From Lactococcus termiticola (GTDB lineage: Bacteria; Bacillota; Bacilli; Lactobacillales; Streptococcaceae): a DNA stretch of 64,000 nucleotides. Shown in pieces: positions 5,638 to 62,774 of this stretch. The translations under genes and the position numbers were made by a program. The notes beneath the pieces were generated by a model. That model saw only the letters and a list, made by a program, of their open reading frames with translations, did no database searches and was not told the origin of the DNA. Every line of letters starts with the position of its first letter. Positions within the stretch are counted from its first letter, which is position 1. The stretch is taken from the NCBI RefSeq assembly GCF_003116835.1, contig NZ_BFFO01000001.1:1-64000 (forward strand), read 5' to 3'.

Positions 5638-6429
5638 TCAGCTTGCAAAGACAATCCGGTTGATAGTGTTCGTAATGCAGGTCTGGAGGACAATGCGTTC
5701 TCCGCCACCAGCACCAGTGATTTGGTCCCAGTAGTCGACCTTATCATTGACACCAATGGCGTGGTCGTCTACATCCACTGTCCCGTTCACGGTATAGTTA
5801 CGGGATTGTCCGTTGCTATCGACCACCGTGATAACCTGGCCCGCCGAAAGACTCAGCACCGGTGCAAAGGCACCGTACTCGTGGCCGATAAAGTGGGTTG
5901 AGAGGCCGTCAGCAACGTTACCGCTAGCTTCTCCCCCCCAGGTTGAGGCCTGGCCAGGATTGCTGTCGATGGCTGCCTGACCGCCAGCACGGCCTCCCAT
6001 GGCGTAATGGTAGCTAGCACCTAGGAAGCTGATGGTCTGGCTGACGACTGCTGGGGCGGGAGCTGGAGCGACTTCTGGAGCAGGAGTAGGGGCAGGACTG
6101 GGAGCTTCTACGATGGCTTCGGCTTCAGCGGCGGGCTCTGGGGCTGGTTCTGGCTCTGGAGCCGGAGCGACCTCTTCTACAGGCTCTGGTGCAGGCTCTT
6201 CTACTACAGCTTCGGGAGCAGGAGCTTCTACTGCTGGCTCAGAGGGGGCTGGGGCAGATTCCTCGGTCTTTTGCGAGCTTGATTTTGGCGGGGCTTGGCT
6301 GGATTGCTGCTCGGTCTTGACTTCTGGTTGAGAAGCGACCTGATCATTTCTCGTAAAGGCAAAGGCGAGGAAGCCTGAGGAGAGGACGGCGAGCGTGCTC
6401 AGTGTAACTAGGATTTTTTTGTTGATCAT
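5638..6429 (-). CDS. Secreted sortase-like transpeptidase with Pro/Ala/Glu spacer
   Basis: The product is 263 residues from the ATG preceded by AAAGGAAG; a frame to 6459 lacks a ribosome site. Residues 1-28 form a signal peptide or N-terminal anchor. Residues 29-130 are a repetitive spacer of PAPEP/EVAPAPA type that could span the wall. Residues 131-263 form a sortase beta-barrel: FIGHEYGAF gives the His (about 183), VLQTCITN the Cys (251) and NRIVFA the Arg (258), so the H-C-R triad is intact. It lacks the class C lid and a C-terminal membrane helix. It best fits class D/F-like stand-alone sortases. Its substrate is unknown, and no LPxTG gene is adjacent. Confidence 0.75.
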   Translation of the reverse strand: MINKKILVTLSTLAVLSSGFLAFAFTRNDQVASQPEVKTEQQSSQAPPKSSSQKTEESAPAPSEPAVEAPAPEAVVEEPAPEPVEEVAPAPEPEPAPEPAAEAEAIVEAPSPAPTPAPEVAPAPAPAVVSQTISFLGASYHYAMGGRAGGQAAIDSNPGQASTWGGEASGNVADGLSTHFIGHEYGAFAPVLSLSAGQVITVVDSNGQSRNYTVNGTVDVDDHAIGVNDKVDYWDQITGAGGGERIVLQTCITNTINRIVFAS

Positions 6430-6558
6430 AGGACTTCCTTTCTTTATTTTCTGAATCATCTATCCTAATTCCATTATAGACGCTGTTTTCGATATTGTGA
6501 AACCATATACATGAAATAAAGATTTGAATTAAATTAGAAAACTCTAATTTATGAAATA

Positions 6559-56311: not shown

Positions 56312-56725
56312 TTAGAAAACTTGAAGCTGTCCCAAAAGATTGCGCAGCGTCGCAGAAAAACCTGAACCGACAAAAGCTACCGCAATGAAATACTCTGCCA
56401 ATAGCGCCCAGCCGGCAACCCAGCCAAAGCCTTCACCAAATAGGACCGAAATCCAAGAATAAGCCGATCCGGCAAAAGGCATCACCGTTGACATTTCAGC
56501 ATAAGCAAAAGCTACAAGCCCAGCTACCACCGCTGCAATCAAATAAGAGAAAACAACAGCCGGCCCGGCATATTCAGCAGCAACGATCCCCGGCAAAGTG
56601 AAAATTGATGTCGAAATAATCGTTCCAACACCCAAGGCCAGAAAATCTCTTGTACCAAGCACTTGCTCTAACTTTTTATCCTTTTGATGATACGTATCAA
56701 AACTCGCGCGTCTCGTAAAATTCAT
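56312..56725 (-). pseudogene. APC-family amino-acid permease, 3' truncated
   Basis: The 137 residues cover only the first four or five of 12 helices of an APC permease: DFLALGVGTIISTSIFTLPG, the consensus after the first helix, then FAYAEMSTVMPFAGSAYSWI and WVAGWALLAEYF. Family members have about 460 residues. The last five residues and the stop come from the adjoining cargo DNA. It keeps its ribosome site (GGAGGG), promoter and a long leader. Confidence 0.85.
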
Positions 56726-57240: not shown

Positions 57241-60200
57241 TCAGCGTTCTTCTTCATTGATGTTTTCTTCTTGTTTTTTTCGCTTTCTAATGGCCACAGA
57301 TCCAGCAGTCACTATACCAGCAAGAGCGACAAGCCCTGCAAGTCCTGCACCTCCTGTAAAAGGAAGTGAAAAGTCCGTTACTATCAGCGCTGTTGTGCTC
57401 ATCACATAATCACTGGCCTGTGCAGCGCCACTCTGGATAAAATCTCCAACCGTCGCATTTGGGTTGCTCGCAAGCCAGTTGTTATAATCTGTGACTCCCT
57501 GCAAAGTCAGCGCATAGAAAGTTTCGGCGTAGTTGCCGTTTTCCATCGGATTGCTGCTTGCTTGGACATTATCTGTAGCATTTCCCATATAGAGATAGCT
57601 ACTATTACTGCTGTCGCTCCCTATAATCACCACGCCAACGGGCGCACCATTGACAGATTCCCCACCATCACCATTATCATCTCCGCCATCAGCATCCAGT
57701 GCTGAGGTGATGTCTGTGACTGGCGTATATCTGGCTGTTTTTGGAATCGTGTTCGTTGCGTTTGAGCTAATAGCAGTATTATCAGAGGCAACATTGATCG
57801 TGACTGTCTGATTAGGAGCGCTAAGCCCTCCCGCAGTCGCCAGCATCGCCGCATAGGTGGCGCTCAGCGAGTAACCGTAATCGGCAACATTAAAGGTTTT
57901 CCCCTGCCAAGTGTAACCTGTGATTTTGATCCCAGCTGCTGCCATATCAGCAGCACTCGCATATCCTGCTGCTGTGATAGCTTGCTGCGTGACATCTGGC
58001 AGACTTCCCGCAGAGACATTTTGAGTGTTTCCGCTTGTACCATTTACAGGATCATTTGGATTGTTGGCATCACTGATGGTCCATTTTAGAGTTGCCTGAT
58101 TAGGGACGACGATAAAGGTATAGTTGCCTGCCGCTGCCAGAAAATTTTTATAAATAGCGTTAGCAGAAGTCGAAGTCTGGAAAATTGACATGGCAGTTTG
58201 ACCATTTGCTGTACCTCCCATTGTTTTTCCAGATACGACCGCGCCAGTTGCGGCAGTATAAGCTGTATAAGTATAAGTACCCGTTTGTGCCCAAATATAA
58301 CCATCATTAGTATTGATCCAAATCGTGTAAGGAGCATTGAATGAACTAATCGAAGTGAGATTACCGTTAGGCAGAGGATTTTTCCAGCCTGCTGTCCCAC
58401 CTGAGGTAAGGAAAATCGCAGGCAGTACGGGGGTCTGCGTCGGAACGACGCTTCCAACTGCACCTGATACGGTCGTTGAGTTTGGAAGCGTGCCCGTCCA
58501 GCTCGTATTACCGCTCACGGCGCCTGTGACGAGCTTGCCCGCCACACCATTGGCACCTGGTGTATCCTTTTCCCCTGGTAGTCCGCCTGTACTTGAGCTG
58601 AACTGATAGTTAAAGGTAACACTTTGTGTGATTGGAGCAAGCGTTACTGTATAGCTATTGCCTGAGGCTGCAAAGGTAGGCGCAGCTGTCCCCGTTGGGA
58701 ACTGTGCAGGATTCGTCTGTGTCCCAGTAACCGTCGTCATGTTTGTCCCAGCAATACTTGAAATATAATAGCCCGCCGGCACTTTTCCATTCATTGTTGT
58801 ATTGATTGTCGTGGTCGGTAGTGCCGTGCCAACATCGCCCTGATAGCTACCAAAGCTAGGGGCTGCTGGTGTGTTGAGTGCCCCTGTCGCATAGGTATAG
58901 GTGCCAGTCGCAGTTGGCTGAGCGCTCAGGACAACGGTATAAGCATTCGCACCTGTCCCTGACGTATCTGCACCAACCGTAAGTCCTGCCACTGTTAGGC
59001 CGTTTAGCGTCGCTGATGTCGTTCCCCCTGAAGCAATAGTTGTTGTGCCCTGTTTAATAGCAGAGATATAGTAGCCCGCTGGAATCTTTCCTGTTAAGTC
59101 TGTTGTCACACTTGAAGGAATTGCCGTTCCCGTCGTCAAATTATTGTAAGTCACTGTCGGAAAGGAAGCTGCATTCCCAGAAGCATTACTAAAAGTCAGT
59201 ACATTATTTGTGAGTGGAGTATAAGCCACGTTAATAACATTGGGATTGTTTGATACTGTCGGATCATAACTCTGCACCGTTACTGCCGTTCCATAGGAAG
59301 TCGTTGTATAGCCTGCCAAGGCTGGAGGAACAAAGTTATAGCTGTTCCCTGTGGCATTGACAGTTGACGGCGTCGTAGCCGCAGCAGCTGTCCCAATAAT
59401 ATCAGAAATGTTCGCTGTAATGGTTGTGCTTGGCGCAATCACTGCCTTTGAGCTATTATTAAGATAATTGACAATAACAGGCTCTGTTCCTTTTTGTCCG
59501 CTAAATGTCAACGAACTCAAATCAAGCGAGAGATTTCCTGTCAGTCCCCCTGTAGATCCAAAAGCTCCGATATTCATTGTAGAGTTGACCGTAATAGTCT
59601 GACTGGTCGTTACAGCTGAATTCTTCGTTGCAAAACTACTATTTAATGGCTGCTCAGTTAGGGTAAGTGTGCCAGTTATTTGTCCTTGTGCATTGGTACT
59701 ACCATTTGGAGCCCACGTGATCGTTATTCTTTCATTCTGAGTGGTGGGCAATGTTTGTGTTTCAGTATTAAGAATTGGAACCATCGTAAAAGGGTAACCT
59801 GGCGCCGCTTTAGTGGCATAGCCCGTACGAACTAATGCTCCTGTTCCATCTGTTGTCCGAATCGAGATTTGTGTTGCGATGCCAGTCGTTCCTTGTGAAG
59901 TTCCACCCGCTCCATCTGAACCATCTAAAGGTCCCAAAGCATAGCCTGTCCCATAACCTGTGGTATTATTGTAAAAATCACGCCCCGCAAAAACTGAATT
60001 AGTCAATCCAGCAATGCCAAGACCACCGCCTCTCGGGTTAGTTGTCGGATTCCCCCAGGCTGGATCAGCTGCGATTGGAGGAATCGGTGCATTGTTGAAA
60101 TTTGTTGACATCTGCGTTTTGGATGCGGGTGTAAGAAAGAAGCCCATCCCATCGCCCACTCCAAAAGGACCGTTTGTACCTGAAGCGACATCACCTGCAG

Positions 60201-60339
60201 TGGTTGACTTCGAAGATTGGAAGATTCCCGAGAGAGTAAAGCCTGCCGACATTGTCATGTTTGATGCCCCATTGAAGTAGGCAAATCCTGTCGTATAAGT
60301 AGGGGACGTCTTTAAAGTAAAGTTGAGCGCATTCCCCAT
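57241..60339 (-). CDS. Pilus-associated lectin adhesin, main part (out of frame with its start)
   Basis: At least 1032 residues follow the frame break. The first about 250 form an L-type lectin-like domain (FAYFNGASNMTMSAGFTLSG, VGDGMGFFLTP, GGGLGIAGL, ITITWAPNG-like strands). Several MucBP-like beta units follow (VIVNYLNNSSKAVIAPSTTI, then two related units with KIPAGYYISAI and KVPAGYYISSI). The end has the sorting signal LPFTGGAGLAGLVALAGI and a basic tail. It should be linked to the wall or pilus tip by sortase. The in-frame Met at 60339 has no ribosome site. Shifting one base at the G8 tract joins it to the signal-peptide frame 60350-60736. It resembles the lectin adhesin of the L. lactis pilus locus (YhhB). 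Confidence 0.85.
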   Translation of the reverse strand: MGNALNFTLKTSPTYTTGFAYFNGASNMTMSAGFTLSGIFQSSKSTTAGDVASGTNGPFGVGDGMGFFLTPASKTQMSTNFNNAPIPPIAADPAWGNPTTNPRGGGLGIAGLTNSVFAGRDFYNNTTGYGTGYALGPLDGSDGAGGTSQGTTGIATQISIRTTDGTGALVRTGYATKAAPGYPFTMVPILNTETQTLPTTQNERITITWAPNGSTNAQGQITGTLTLTEQPLNSSFATKNSAVTTSQTITVNSTMNIGAFGSTGGLTGNLSLDLSSLTFSGQKGTEPVIVNYLNNSSKAVIAPSTTITANISDIIGTAAAATTPSTVNATGNSYNFVPPALAGYTTTSYGTAVTVQSYDPTVSNNPNVINVAYTPLTNNVLTFSNASGNAASFPTVTYNNLTTGTAIPSSVTTDLTGKIPAGYYISAIKQGTTTIASGGTTSATLNGLTVAGLTVGADTSGTGANAYTVVLSAQPTATGTYTYATGALNTPAAPSFGSYQGDVGTALPTTTINTTMNGKVPAGYYISSIAGTNMTTVTGTQTNPAQFPTGTAAPTFAASGNSYTVTLAPITQSVTFNYQFSSSTGGLPGEKDTPGANGVAGKLVTGAVSGNTSWTGTLPNSTTVSGAVGSVVPTQTPVLPAIFLTSGGTAGWKNPLPNGNLTSISSFNAPYTIWINTNDGYIWAQTGTYTYTAYTAATGAVVSGKTMGGTANGQTAMSIFQTSTSANAIYKNFLAAAGNYTFIVVPNQATLKWTISDANNPNDPVNGTSGNTQNVSAGSLPDVTQQAITAAGYASAADMAAAGIKITGYTWQGKTFNVADYGYSLSATYAAMLATAGGLSAPNQTVTINVASDNTAISSNATNTIPKTARYTPVTDITSALDADGGDDNGDGGESVNGAPVGVVIIGSDSSNSSYLYMGNATDNVQASSNPMENGNYAETFYALTLQGVTDYNNWLASNPNATVGDFIQSGAAQASDYVMSTTALIVTDFSLPFTGGAGLAGLVALAGIVTAGSVAIRKRKKQEENINEEER

Positions 60340-60349
60340 TTTAGAGCCC

Positions 60350-60736
60350 TCACCCGATGACGCTCCATACGCAGAAGCCCCCCCCTAACGTCCAGTTTGC
60401 TGTTTGGGTAATGTCACTCGCCTGATAAGTATGATCTCCCGTATCAGCCGTCCCTCCAGCTGTTAACTGCCCATTGGCAGGGGTGGTCGCAGCTTTCACT
60501 TTTTGGATGGGAGTATTTAGAAAAGGAGTGAATGCAGGGAGCACACCACCGCTAAAAAGCACGACTGTTAAAGAAGCATATAGCCATTTTTCCCTGATTT
60601 CCAAGTACGGAAGTTCGTTTTCTGGACATTTCCTAACGATGCTGTCTTCCTTTTTTCGTGAGACACAGGAGGGTTTTCGGTTTTCAGTAGATTTCTTTTT
60701 TTGAGCGTTATTCTTTTCATGCTTTGAATGATACAT
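60350..60736 (-). CDS. N-terminal part of the lectin adhesin (signal peptide), ends by frameshift
   Basis: The 128-residue frame starts after GGAGGAAAGG. A long basic N-region precedes a hydrophobic helix (REKWLYASLTVVLFSGGVLP), an extended signal peptide. A mature start VKAATTPANGQLTAGGTADT follows, and then TANWTLGGG, where a run of eight G leads to a stop 9 codons on. With seven G the frame runs on as GGASAYGASSGEGSKMGNAL into the lectin part. Whether cells carry a mix of tract lengths cannot be seen from one sequence. Confidence 0.8.
   Translation of the reverse strand: MYHSKHEKNNAQKKKSTENRKPSCVSRKKEDSIVRKCPENELPYLEIREKWLYASLTVVLFSGGVLPAFTPFLNTPIQKVKAATTPANGQLTAGGTADTGDHTYQASDITQTANWTLGGGFCVWSVIG
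60378..60385 (-). repeat. G8 homopolymer tract in the adhesin gene
   Basis: Eight C on the plus strand (G on the coding strand) lie about 120 codons into the adhesin gene, exactly at the frame break. Such tracts gain or lose a base easily during replication. Losing one G (or gaining two) restores a reading frame of about 1160 residues. Confidence 0.9.
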
Positions 60737-60750
60737 CCTTTCCTCCCTTC

Positions 60751-61473
60751 TTAATTTTTCTGATGCTTTCGTCTTCTAAGCAGTACGGCGAAAAGCAGAC
60801 TGAGAAAGCCGCCTAACACCCAAAAAATCTGAGCTGCACCTCCCGTTTTCGGCAATAGCTGATTTAAAGTACCGTTTTTTCCTCCTTCATGCTCTCCTTT
60901 AGGATTCGGCTGTGGCTGTGGTGTCTTACCTCCTGAAGGCGGTTGTGCCTCGACGCTGGACTTCGGATAGAGAGTGAGCGTGTCCAGGTAAGCGTGATTA
61001 GCTTCACTCCAAACTGGAAGCTCGATCAAAAGCGGCTTGGCTGGATAAAGAAGGCCTTTACTAGGATTCGCTTCTTCTTCCACCAGATAAATGCCATCAG
61101 CCAGCTGGAGTGAAGCTTGTCCATTCTGATCAGTCAAAATCTGGCTCGGTGCGCCAACAGATTGATACGTTGATGCTACATTAGGATCGATCTTCTCTGA
61201 TCCTGCTGCTCTGATTTCTTGAATCACATAAGTAATCCCCGGAATCAAGCGCAACTCTTTTCCCGTATTATCATAGACAGGAAGATGATTGATCTCTTCT
61301 CCCGTATTGATGGTCTGACTTTCTTGAAAACCTGTCGCACCATTTGAGAGCCCATATTTGACGATCGTCACGGTCTGCGTATGCGTTGCTGCTTGCGTGA
61401 TACTTGCGACTCCTAGACTAACGCACAATACGAAAAACATGATCAGTTGATGGAGATACTTTTTTGCTCTCAT
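60751..61473 (-). CDS. Small LPKTG pilin / pilus anchor
   Basis: The 240-residue protein has a Sec signal (LGVASITQA-ATH). Two prealbumin-like beta domains follow, with ITYVIQEIRAAGSEK and ILTDQNGQASLQLADGIYLVEEE, in which the E of a pilin E-box is visible. A proline-rich stretch leads to the sorting signal LLPKTGGAAQIFWVLGGF and the tail RRRKHQKN. It resembles minor or basal pilins that end a pilus and are fixed to the wall. It overlaps the sortase gene by 4 nt. Confidence 0.85.
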   Translation of the reverse strand: MRAKKYLHQLIMFFVLCVSLGVASITQAATHTQTVTIVKYGLSNGATGFQESQTINTGEEINHLPVYDNTGKELRLIPGITYVIQEIRAAGSEKIDPNVASTYQSVGAPSQILTDQNGQASLQLADGIYLVEEEANPSKGLLYPAKPLLIELPVWSEANHAYLDTLTLYPKSSVEAQPPSGGKTPQPQPNPKGEHEGGKNGTLNQLLPKTGGAAQIFWVLGGFLSLLFAVLLRRRKHQKN

Positions 61474-62774
61474 TTCTCCTCCTTCCCATTTTTTCTTCTC
61501 TTTTTCTGACTCTCTTTCGTTGGAAGCGGATAAGAGCGAAGATACGTGAGATGTTCAAGGGCTTGCTCGCTTTGCACGACAAGCTGCCGATGGGCACGTC
61601 CGATCCTTACCGCTGTCTGATCATGCGGGCCCTTGACATAATCATGCTCTCTTCCTTCATAAGTGTTCGCGACCTGCTGCTGGACAAATTTACGCCAGTT
61701 TTCAGTCTTTTGATGATAAATCAGATATTTTAACTCTTTTTTCTCCCTTTGAAAACGATAATAATTGATGACGGCACCCTCTCCTAAAGCTTGTGCCTGA
61801 TATTTGGCCAGCTTTTTGCTGCTGGTCAGATAAATTCCGAAGCCAAATTCTCCATCTCTGGCATCTTTTGATAAAGTCAGATGTGTTGATGCCGTGAGAG
61901 TGGCACGATAAAATGGAGCACGCTTTCTCAAAATCCAGAGCAGAAGCGCTCCGATTCCCAAAAGAGCCAAAAAGATAGAAATCAGAAAAACCCAAAAAGG
62001 ATAGCCAAATTGATTTCGATTGATTCGCTCTGTCGGTGTTATTTTTGAGAGTGCGATCCGTTTTCCCGTGACTAAGAGCCGTTCATTATTAATCCCCGTC
62101 GGATAACAAGTCACAAGTGTCGCCAGATCCTCACCTTTGATAATCCCCAAAGTTGAAACATCGCTCGGATTAACGACTTTAATATTAATCACTTCATATT
62201 TCAAATCAAGATTTAAGGTATGAAGATAGAAAACATCATCTTTTTTCAACTTATCTAAATCACTAAAAAGTGTATCATTGACCCGTCCAGAGTGCGCTGC
62301 CAAGACAGTATGTGTATTAGTACCACCAATGGGTAAACTCGTCTGCGAGAGATGACCGACCCCAATAGCAAGTGTACTTTCTGCATCGCCATGATAGATA
62401 GGCACATCATTGACCGTAATCTGTGGAATTGAGATATAACCCATCATGCCTGATTTATCAATATTTAACGTACTATTGTAATCTGGAATTTTTCCAGACC
62501 AAGGAATATGCTGACTCATGTCATAGACATATTCATTGTAAAGACGAGCATTGTAGAGTTTTGCCTGATCTAACATCTCTGTTATTTTTGACTTGCTTGT
62601 CTTTGAAAGTTCTGAATTAAAATTTTGAACAGACTTGACTGCCTGTTGTGACGCCAAGTAATTTGCGACAATCGGGTAAAAGAGTACCCCCAAAGCAGTA
62701 AGCAAAAGGATTGTGGATAAGATATTACGAATGGAATGTTTACTTCTAGCGGATTTTTTAGGTTTTTTATTCAT
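61470..62774 (-). CDS. srtC: Class C pilus sortase fused to a DUF3990/ART-like domain
   Basis: The 434-residue product starts at the ATG after AAGGAAGG. Helix 1 is at about 17-40. The outer sortase domain has His 161 (TVLAAHSGRVND), Cys 223 (LATLVTCYPTG) and Arg 232 (NNERLLVTGKR). Helix 2 spans about 257-282, as in class C enzymes that polymerise pilins. Beyond it lies an extra cytosolic domain (about 288-415) with FYRATL, GEFGFGIYLTSSKKLA, INYYRF, WRKFV, EHDYVKGPHDQ and VVQSEQALEHL. These follow the order of DUF3990 proteins (LYHGS, DFGxGFYxT, YDxVxGPxAD, TEKAL). The His-Gly of LYHGS is Arg-Ala here, so NAD use is uncertain. Class C sortases usually end soon after helix 2. Confidence 0.85.
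   Translation of the reverse strand: MNKKPKKSARSKHSIRNILSTILLLTALGVLFYPIVANYLASQQAVKSVQNFNSELSKTSKSKITEMLDQAKLYNARLYNEYVYDMSQHIPWSGKIPDYNSTLNIDKSGMMGYISIPQITVNDVPIYHGDAESTLAIGVGHLSQTSLPIGGTNTHTVLAAHSGRVNDTLFSDLDKLKKDDVFYLHTLNLDLKYEVINIKVVNPSDVSTLGIIKGEDLATLVTCYPTGINNERLLVTGKRIALSKITPTERINRNQFGYPFWVFLISIFLALLGIGALLLWILRKRAPFYRATLTASTHLTLSKDARDGEFGFGIYLTSSKKLAKYQAQALGEGAVINYYRFQREKKELKYLIYHQKTENWRKFVQQQVANTYEGREHDYVKGPHDQTAVRIGRAHRQLVVQSEQALEHLTYLRSYPLPTKESQKKRRKNGKEEK

What the first reader, a model, noticed from the sequence alone, without database searches (positions are those of the whole stretch)
61470..62774. Pilus sortase with a cytosolic DUF3990 / ADP-ribosyltransferase-like domain
Seen: after a complete class C sortase (His, Cys, Arg and second membrane helix) there is an extra domain of about 130 residues. 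Its motifs occur in the order known for DUF3990 proteins: FYRATL for LYHGS, EFGFGIYLT for DFGxGFYxT, WRKFV, HDYVKGPHD for YDxVxGPxAD, and VVQSEQALEHL near the end. Known: DUF3990 is grouped with ADP-ribosyltransferase-like folds, and the class C second helix leaves the C-terminus in the cytosol. Inferred: pilus assembly outside may be coupled to a signalling or modifying (or pseudo-enzyme) module inside. The NAD-binding His-Gly is replaced, so it could be a binding domain only. I do not know of a described system of this kind.
Basis: partly seen in the sequence, partly recalled or inferred. Interest (0 to 1): 0.85.

Follow-up and report, generated by a model that had tools for sequence, protein, structure and literature searches.

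The report
Pilus sortase with cytosolic pseudo-ART tail
The enzyme that links pilus subunits outside a Lactococcus cell carries, on the inside, a folded domain related to NAD-using toxins that has lost most of its hallmark residues; related enzymes carry other domains at the same spot, so the inner side of this pilus machine may have an unsuspected job.

Summary
Window 62774..61470 (-) encodes a 434-residue class C sortase; behind its second membrane helix lies a DUF3990 domain (Pfam 39.9 bits, cut-off 32.2). Profile-profile comparison with stand-alone DUF3990 proteins gives 99.5%, E 3e-23. A model of the tail (pLDDT 91.9) resembles a RES toxin and PARP-type ADP-ribosyltransferases, at marginal E-values. 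The gene fits srtC of the Lactococcus pil operon, studied in L. lactis; the passages of that paper I saw name two helices and no domain behind them. DUF3990 occurs in 7 of 18 Lactococcus genomes, only as this tail (one copy broken). Of residues shared by 23 stand-alone members, His stays in 2 of 6 tails, Gly and Arg in none; Tyr, Trp and Gln stay in six. The usual neighbour DUF3791 is absent from all 18 genomes. In six other Lactococcus genomes the sortase of a like-built operon carries a Cys-less pseudo-sortase (3) or an unidentified domain (3) there; tailless paralogues sit in second pilus operons. Best reading: a retired toxin-type domain serving as cytosolic docking or control module. That role is inferred. 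The active-enzyme reading is not excluded.

The parts
61470..62774 (-). class C sortase gene with C-terminal DUF3990 domain, 434 aa (srtC of a pil-type operon)
62673..62729 (-). first membrane helix, about residues 16-34; basic N-terminus before it
   Evidence: hydropathy, (numbers there are for the ORF with 12 extra residues); charges
62058..62435 (-). extracellular sortase domain, residues 114-239; catalytic His161, Cys223, Arg232 (assigned by the family pattern)
61926..61985 (-). second membrane helix, about residues 264-283
   Evidence: hydropathy
61473..61919 (-). cytosolic tail, residues 286-434, predicted ADP-ribosyltransferase-like fold
61542..61889 (-). DUF3990 match inside the tail, residues 296-411
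61470..61473 (-). ATGA overlap of the sortase stop with the start of the next pilin gene
60751..61473 (-). small LPKTG pilin (basal type), GramPos_pilinD1 40.6 bits
62822..64000 (-). backbone pilin (LPFTGG), runs on to 64753 of the contig, 643 aa in all
57241..60736 (-). large LPFTGG surface protein (tip type) in two reading frames, 60736-60350 and 60339-57241
   Evidence: not mended

Best explanation
SrtC of the Lactococcus pil operon is a trans-envelope protein: a working class C sortase outside and a folded, ADP-ribosyltransferase-like DUF3990 domain inside. The inner domain derives from a stand-alone toxin/defence-type family, has very probably lost NAD chemistry, and is kept as a binding module that docks the sortase to cytosolic partners or a ligand and so places it or gates it (for example at the Sec/septal site where pilins are exported). 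Shown by computation: family, fold, position, loss of residues, conservation, replacement by other domains in relatives. Inferred: cytosolic side, pseudo-enzyme state, docking or control role. Guess: the partner.
For: DUF3990 by Pfam and profile-profile; ART-like fold, pLDDT 91.9. His 2/6, Gly 0/6, Arg 0/6 in tails against 23/23 in stand-alone members, while Tyr, Trp, Gln, Phe-Gly-x-Gly are 6/6. Two close genomes (G010/G007): tail dN/dS 0.085 on 8 changes. DUF3791, the gene next to stand-alone members, is absent from 18 of 18 genus genomes. At the same position relatives carry a Cys-less pseudo-sortase (98.1%, E 1e-13) or an unidentified domain, as expected if binding rather than one chemistry is what counts. 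Tailless close paralogues sit in second pilus operons of 7 genomes, so the tail is not needed for the sortase reaction as such. PMC3516528 (passages) says that a charged stretch beside a membrane helix takes part in focal placing of sortases.
Against: No partner, ligand or phenotype is known. Tyr and Gln at two candidate active-site positions are kept in six of six tails and His in two, so ligand binding or residual chemistry is possible. Some stand-alone members from Streptococcus also lack the Gly (L067, L073, L074; left out of the 23). Canonical rows were in part chosen by a DFGxGFY pattern, so that motif's invariance is biased; His, Gly, Arg, Trp, Gln were not in that pattern. Tails change faster than the catalytic part (tail 66/131 identical, catalytic 138/165, window against G011). 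The L. cremoris copy is broken.
Confidence: 0.45

Rival explanations
1. The tail is an active ADP-ribosyltransferase or NADase tethered under the pilus machine that modifies a cytosolic target or reports on pilus assembly.
For: ART-like fold with a RES toxin as best solved match; Tyr and Gln kept in 6/6 and His in 2/6 tails; PADLOC's phage-defence candidates PDC-M13A/M10A match the tail at 42 and 39 bits.
Against: His-Gly, Arg and the late Asp-Ala motif, 23/23 in stand-alone members, are mostly lost, and the loss differs between species (R, H or Q for His).
Confidence: 0.15
2. The tail senses a nucleotide or metabolite (NAD-like) in the old cleft and switches the sortase.
For: Fold kept, chemistry residues lost, some cleft-type residues kept.
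Against: No binding data; relatives with unrelated folds in the same place argue against one common ligand.
Confidence: 0.2
3. A neutral leftover: a domain fused by chance and drifting, without function.
For: Faster change than the catalytic part; broken srtC in L. cremoris NBRC 100676; sortases without a tail exist.
Against: Open frame in 7 of 8 fused copies; dN/dS 0.085 in the one unsaturated pair (few changes); ordered model; 20 of about 149 positions invariant in six species.
Confidence: 0.15

Closest known systems
SrtC (YhhA) of the pil operon yhgD-yhgE-srtC-yhhB, Lactococcus lactis IL1403 (PMC3516528, passages)
   Same: Gene order type, 432 against 434 residues, TLVTC at 221-225 against 219-223, two helices; the control genome Lactococcus lactis matches DUF3990 over the cut-off.
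   Different: The paper's passages (12 of 38 places, 4) speak of helices only; its main text has no 'ADP-ribosyl' and no 'unknown function'. I did not see the IL1403 sequence itself.
Stand-alone DUF3990 proteins with DUF3791 neighbours (PADLOC PDC-M13A/M10A candidates)
   Same: Same family and predicted fold.
   Different: Stand-alone, 160-230 aa as a rule, with a DUF3791 neighbour (Pfam in 3 of 3 tested; by eye in 8 of 9 loci); they keep His-Gly and Arg. The tail is fused, shorter between GP and Gln, without that neighbour.
RES toxin of a Xre-RES pair (9r35)
   Same: Best solved match of the tail model: E 1.8e-3, TM 0.52.
   Different: 7% identity; a toxin-antitoxin protein, no sortase or helix.
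Rhs5-CT of Serratia marcescens (PMC4524185, one passage)
   Same: Bears DUF3990 as a C-terminal domain.
   Different: A secreted antibacterial effector with an immunity protein.
Class C sortases with SpaA-like tails in other Streptococcaceae and Lactobacillales genomes
   Same: A domain of about 110-130 residues behind the second helix.
   Different: SpaA (prealbumin-like) fold: over the cut-off in 1 of 4 tested, under it in 3.

Membership tests
class C (pilin) sortase | sortase domain with His, Cys, Arg | tested here: met
class C (pilin) sortase | second, C-terminal membrane helix | tested here: met
   hydropathy only
class C (pilin) sortase | pilin genes beside it | tested here: met
class C (pilin) sortase | polymerises pilins | not testable with these tools
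   shown for the L. lactis counterpart by Cys-to-Ala in PMC3516528 (passage)
DUF3990 (PF13151) | profile score over the curated cut-off | tested here: met
   39.9 and 43.8 against 32.2 bits
DUF3990 (PF13151) | residues common to stand-alone members (His-Gly, Arg, late Asp and Ala) | tested here: not met
   window has R, A, V, D, D at these places; only the Asp fits
ADP-ribosyltransferase fold | fold match to solved ARTs | tested here: inconclusive
   RES 1.8e-3, tankyrase 0.011, none at 1e-3 or below in PDB; 12 viral models at 1e-3 or below, several named ART
active ADP-ribosyltransferase or NADase | NAD-binding His and catalytic set | tested here: not met
   His is Arg in the window; activity itself not testable
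DUF3990/DUF3791 cassette | DUF3791 gene nearby | tested here: not met
   0 of 18 genus genomes

The most novel reading that the evidence does not exclude
Pilus sortases are trans-envelope receptors: their inner tails (DUF3990, pseudo-sortase, SpaA-like, unidentified) are exchangeable modules through which the cell reads or steers pilus building, and here a toxin-type ADP-ribosyltransferase fold was retired into that role.
Probability: 0.2. Interest if true: 0.85.

Novelty: new variant of a known kind. Interest (0 to 1): 0.6.

Why it matters
Class C sortases are treated as extracellular enzymes with membrane anchors. A conserved folded domain on the cytosolic side, of different kinds in related species, gives a concrete handle on the open question of how pilus assembly outside is placed and controlled from inside. 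It lies in a tractable, harmless model, L. lactis, where the pil operon and its assays already exist (PMC3516528, passages).

Tried and rejected
ASCH/PUA guess for the tails of G009, G003, G002: rejected, 0.1% against nine genus ASCH proteins, no Pfam hit. All tail types being one family: rejected, cross-comparisons 2.2% or less. DUF3990-sortase fusions outside Lactococcus: one, in an unnamed Streptococcaceae MAG (G034); none seen among 299 phylum genomes (12 with a match) or 395 order genomes (17 with a match) apart from the window's own; two long frames there are not sortases. These are samples. Full-length model: poor, pLDDT 50.5; not used. First scan of genome contigs with the whole protein found no relative. 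PDB sequence searches with DUF3990 profiles: nothing significant, best 0.012 to an unlike enzyme. PHROGs: no significant match for the tail, best 0.054. One clade for all DUF3990 sortases: not rejected (p 0.378) but not shown; all tailed ones likewise (p 0.425).

Rows dropped: of the stand-alone ORFs printed I took ten for the profile; L063, L065, L066, L067, L073, L074, L089, L092, L094-L096 and L102 were left out (all keep His; L067, L073, L074 lack the Gly). Of 27 loci, 13 went into the alignment; L108 failed on a stop. The broken L. cremoris copy and the near-identical G007 row were left out of the tail alignments.

Full report
What is there. The minus-strand ORF 62774..61470 encodes 434 residues: a basic N-terminus, a membrane helix, a class C sortase domain (Pfam Sortase E 1.9e-22; NCBIfam class_C_sortase 234.8 bits), a second helix at about 264-283 and a tail of about 149 residues. 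The tail matches DUF3990 over Pfam's cut-off. The stop overlaps the start of the next pilin gene by ATGA. Upstream lies a backbone pilin (iso_D2_wall_anc 102.1 bits for the part in the window; 643 aa in all), downstream a small LPKTG pilin and a large surface protein in two frames.

Whose genome. The window's genus is therefore Lactococcus; its species I did not determine. The operon fits the pil operon of L. lactis IL1403, whose SrtC has 432 residues with TLVTC at 221-225 (PMC3516528, passages). The named control genome Lactococcus lactis also matches DUF3990 over the cut-off.

Distribution. In the genus, 7 of 18 genomes have a DUF3990 match, one each, and each is this tail; the L. cremoris copy has stops inside. 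In the family sample 30 of 196 genomes match at 1e-3, 26 over the cut-off; eight are the sortase fusion (the seven plus G034), the others lie in frames of at most 226 aa. In samples of 299 phylum genomes (12 matching) and 395 order genomes (17 matching) the only fusion seen is the window's own.

Family and fold. Tails of six species against ten stand-alone DUF3990 proteins: 99.5%, E 3.3e-23, over 134 columns. With 18 sequences AlphaFold2 gives pLDDT 91.9, pTM 0.82. Foldseek in the PDB: RES toxin E 1.8e-3, TM 0.52; tankyrase 0.011; nothing at 1e-3 or below. Among predicted viral proteins 12 matches at 1e-3 or below, several named ART-PolyVal or PolyVal ADP-ribosyltransferase. DUF3990 is listed in Pfam's ART clan (PMC7955679, one passage). 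The full-length model is poor (pLDDT 50.5), though the tail part is its best region.

Degeneration. Counting on one alignment: His of the first motif 23/23 in stand-alone members, 2/6 in tails (R, H, Q); the Gly after it 23/23 and 0/6; the Arg after the Trp motif 23/23 and 0/6; the Ala of the late motif 23/23 and 1/6; the Asp before it 23/23 and 3/6. Kept in six of six tails: Phe-Gly-x-Gly, Tyr30, Ala38, Trp82, Gly104, Gln140. The stand-alone rows were in part found by a DFGxGFY pattern and by a pattern of the late motif, so those columns are biased; the His-Gly, Arg, Trp and Gln columns are not. Three Streptococcus members left out lack the Gly but keep His. That His is the NAD-binding residue is recalled knowledge of ARTs.

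Context of stand-alone members. In nine loci looked at, eight show a small ORF of DUF3791 type beside DUF3990 (by eye); Pfam confirms DUF3791 in 3 of 3 such ORFs tested, while three other small neighbours match nothing. DUF3791 is absent from 18 of 18 Lactococcus genomes. PADLOC lists the family as phage-defence candidates; the stand-alone L083 scores 228 bits, the sortase 42 bits with PDC-M13A. In print DUF3990 appears in four papers of the library, one naming it in an Rhs effector, none by title or passage seen about sortases.

Other tails in the same place. Of the 18 genus genomes, three (G005, G016, G008) have an operon of the same make-up whose sortase tail is a second, degenerate sortase (98.1%, E 1.1e-13 against twelve sortase cores, without the TLVTC Cys) and three (G009, G003, G002) a tail without any match, 46-49% identical among themselves. 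The remaining five gave only weaker or other sortases. Seven genomes (G005, G007, G008, G010, G012, G016, G034) also hold a close tailless paralogue of 280-301 aa, in six of them seen in a second pilin operon. Outside, other class C sortases have SpaA-like tails (1 of 4 over the cut-off), short tails, or a second full sortase. On the tree of catalytic parts each tail type fits a single origin: three changes for four states; the deeper forks are unresolved.

Selection. Nei-Gojobori dN/dS for close pairs: DUF3990 tail 0.085 against catalytic 0.025 (G010/G007, 8 and 12 changes); pseudo-sortase tail 0.355 against 0.158; unidentified tail 0.385 against 0.084. Other pairs are saturated at synonymous sites in at least one part. 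The tails are thus held by selection, less tightly than the enzyme.

Mechanism. Shown by computation: family, fold, position, conservation, loss of residues, replacement by other domains. Inferred: cytosolic side, pseudo-enzyme, docking or control. A charged stretch beside a helix is said to take part in focal placing of sortases and to be present in L. lactis SrtC (PMC3516528, passages); the work on E. faecalis SrtC that I believe stands behind this I saw only as a reference and could not open. I place the overall mechanism at 0.45, the family assignment far higher (about 0.97).

In print. Searches of the held library: DUF3990, sortase with ADP-ribosyltransferase domain and pilus (none), Lactococcus with SrtC and ADP-ribosyl (none), class C sortase with cytoplasmic domain (one biofilm paper, listing only). 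None listed describes such a tail. Most subscription papers are not held, and automatic databases may already label the domain.

Noticed in passing
window 57241-60736, run at 60378-60385: The large surface protein of the operon lies in two reading frames, with a run of eight G (coding strand) near the end of the first. Slippage-type switching or a sequencing error could explain it; described, not mended.
   Followed up: partly
L045 9094-11426; L152 6263-8820; L036 2021-4372: Pilin genes split into two frames also in three other genomes, with no homopolymer run of the lengths searched nearby.
   Followed up: partly
L021 571-2373; L157 3414-5201; L158 3667-5475: Sortases of about 600 aa made of two sortase-like halves joined through membrane helices.
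   Followed up: no
L017, L018, L019 tails (2314-2766, 2314-2733, 2317-2733): Cytosolic sortase tail of unidentified family in three Lactococcus genomes.
   Followed up: partly
L014, L015, L036 tails: A sortase-like domain without the catalytic Cys behind the second helix, so on the cytosolic side by topology.
   Followed up: partly
window 56312-56725: Short ORF that reads like the first part of an amino-acid permease; label from reading, not from a search.
   Followed up: no
window 5933-5939: Run of seven C inside the ORF 5638-6459, which has a weak partial sortase match.
   Followed up: no
L102 4926-5438: ART-like ORF with FYHGT on a 407-kb viral contig, found by the tail profile at 33% identity.
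   Followed up: no
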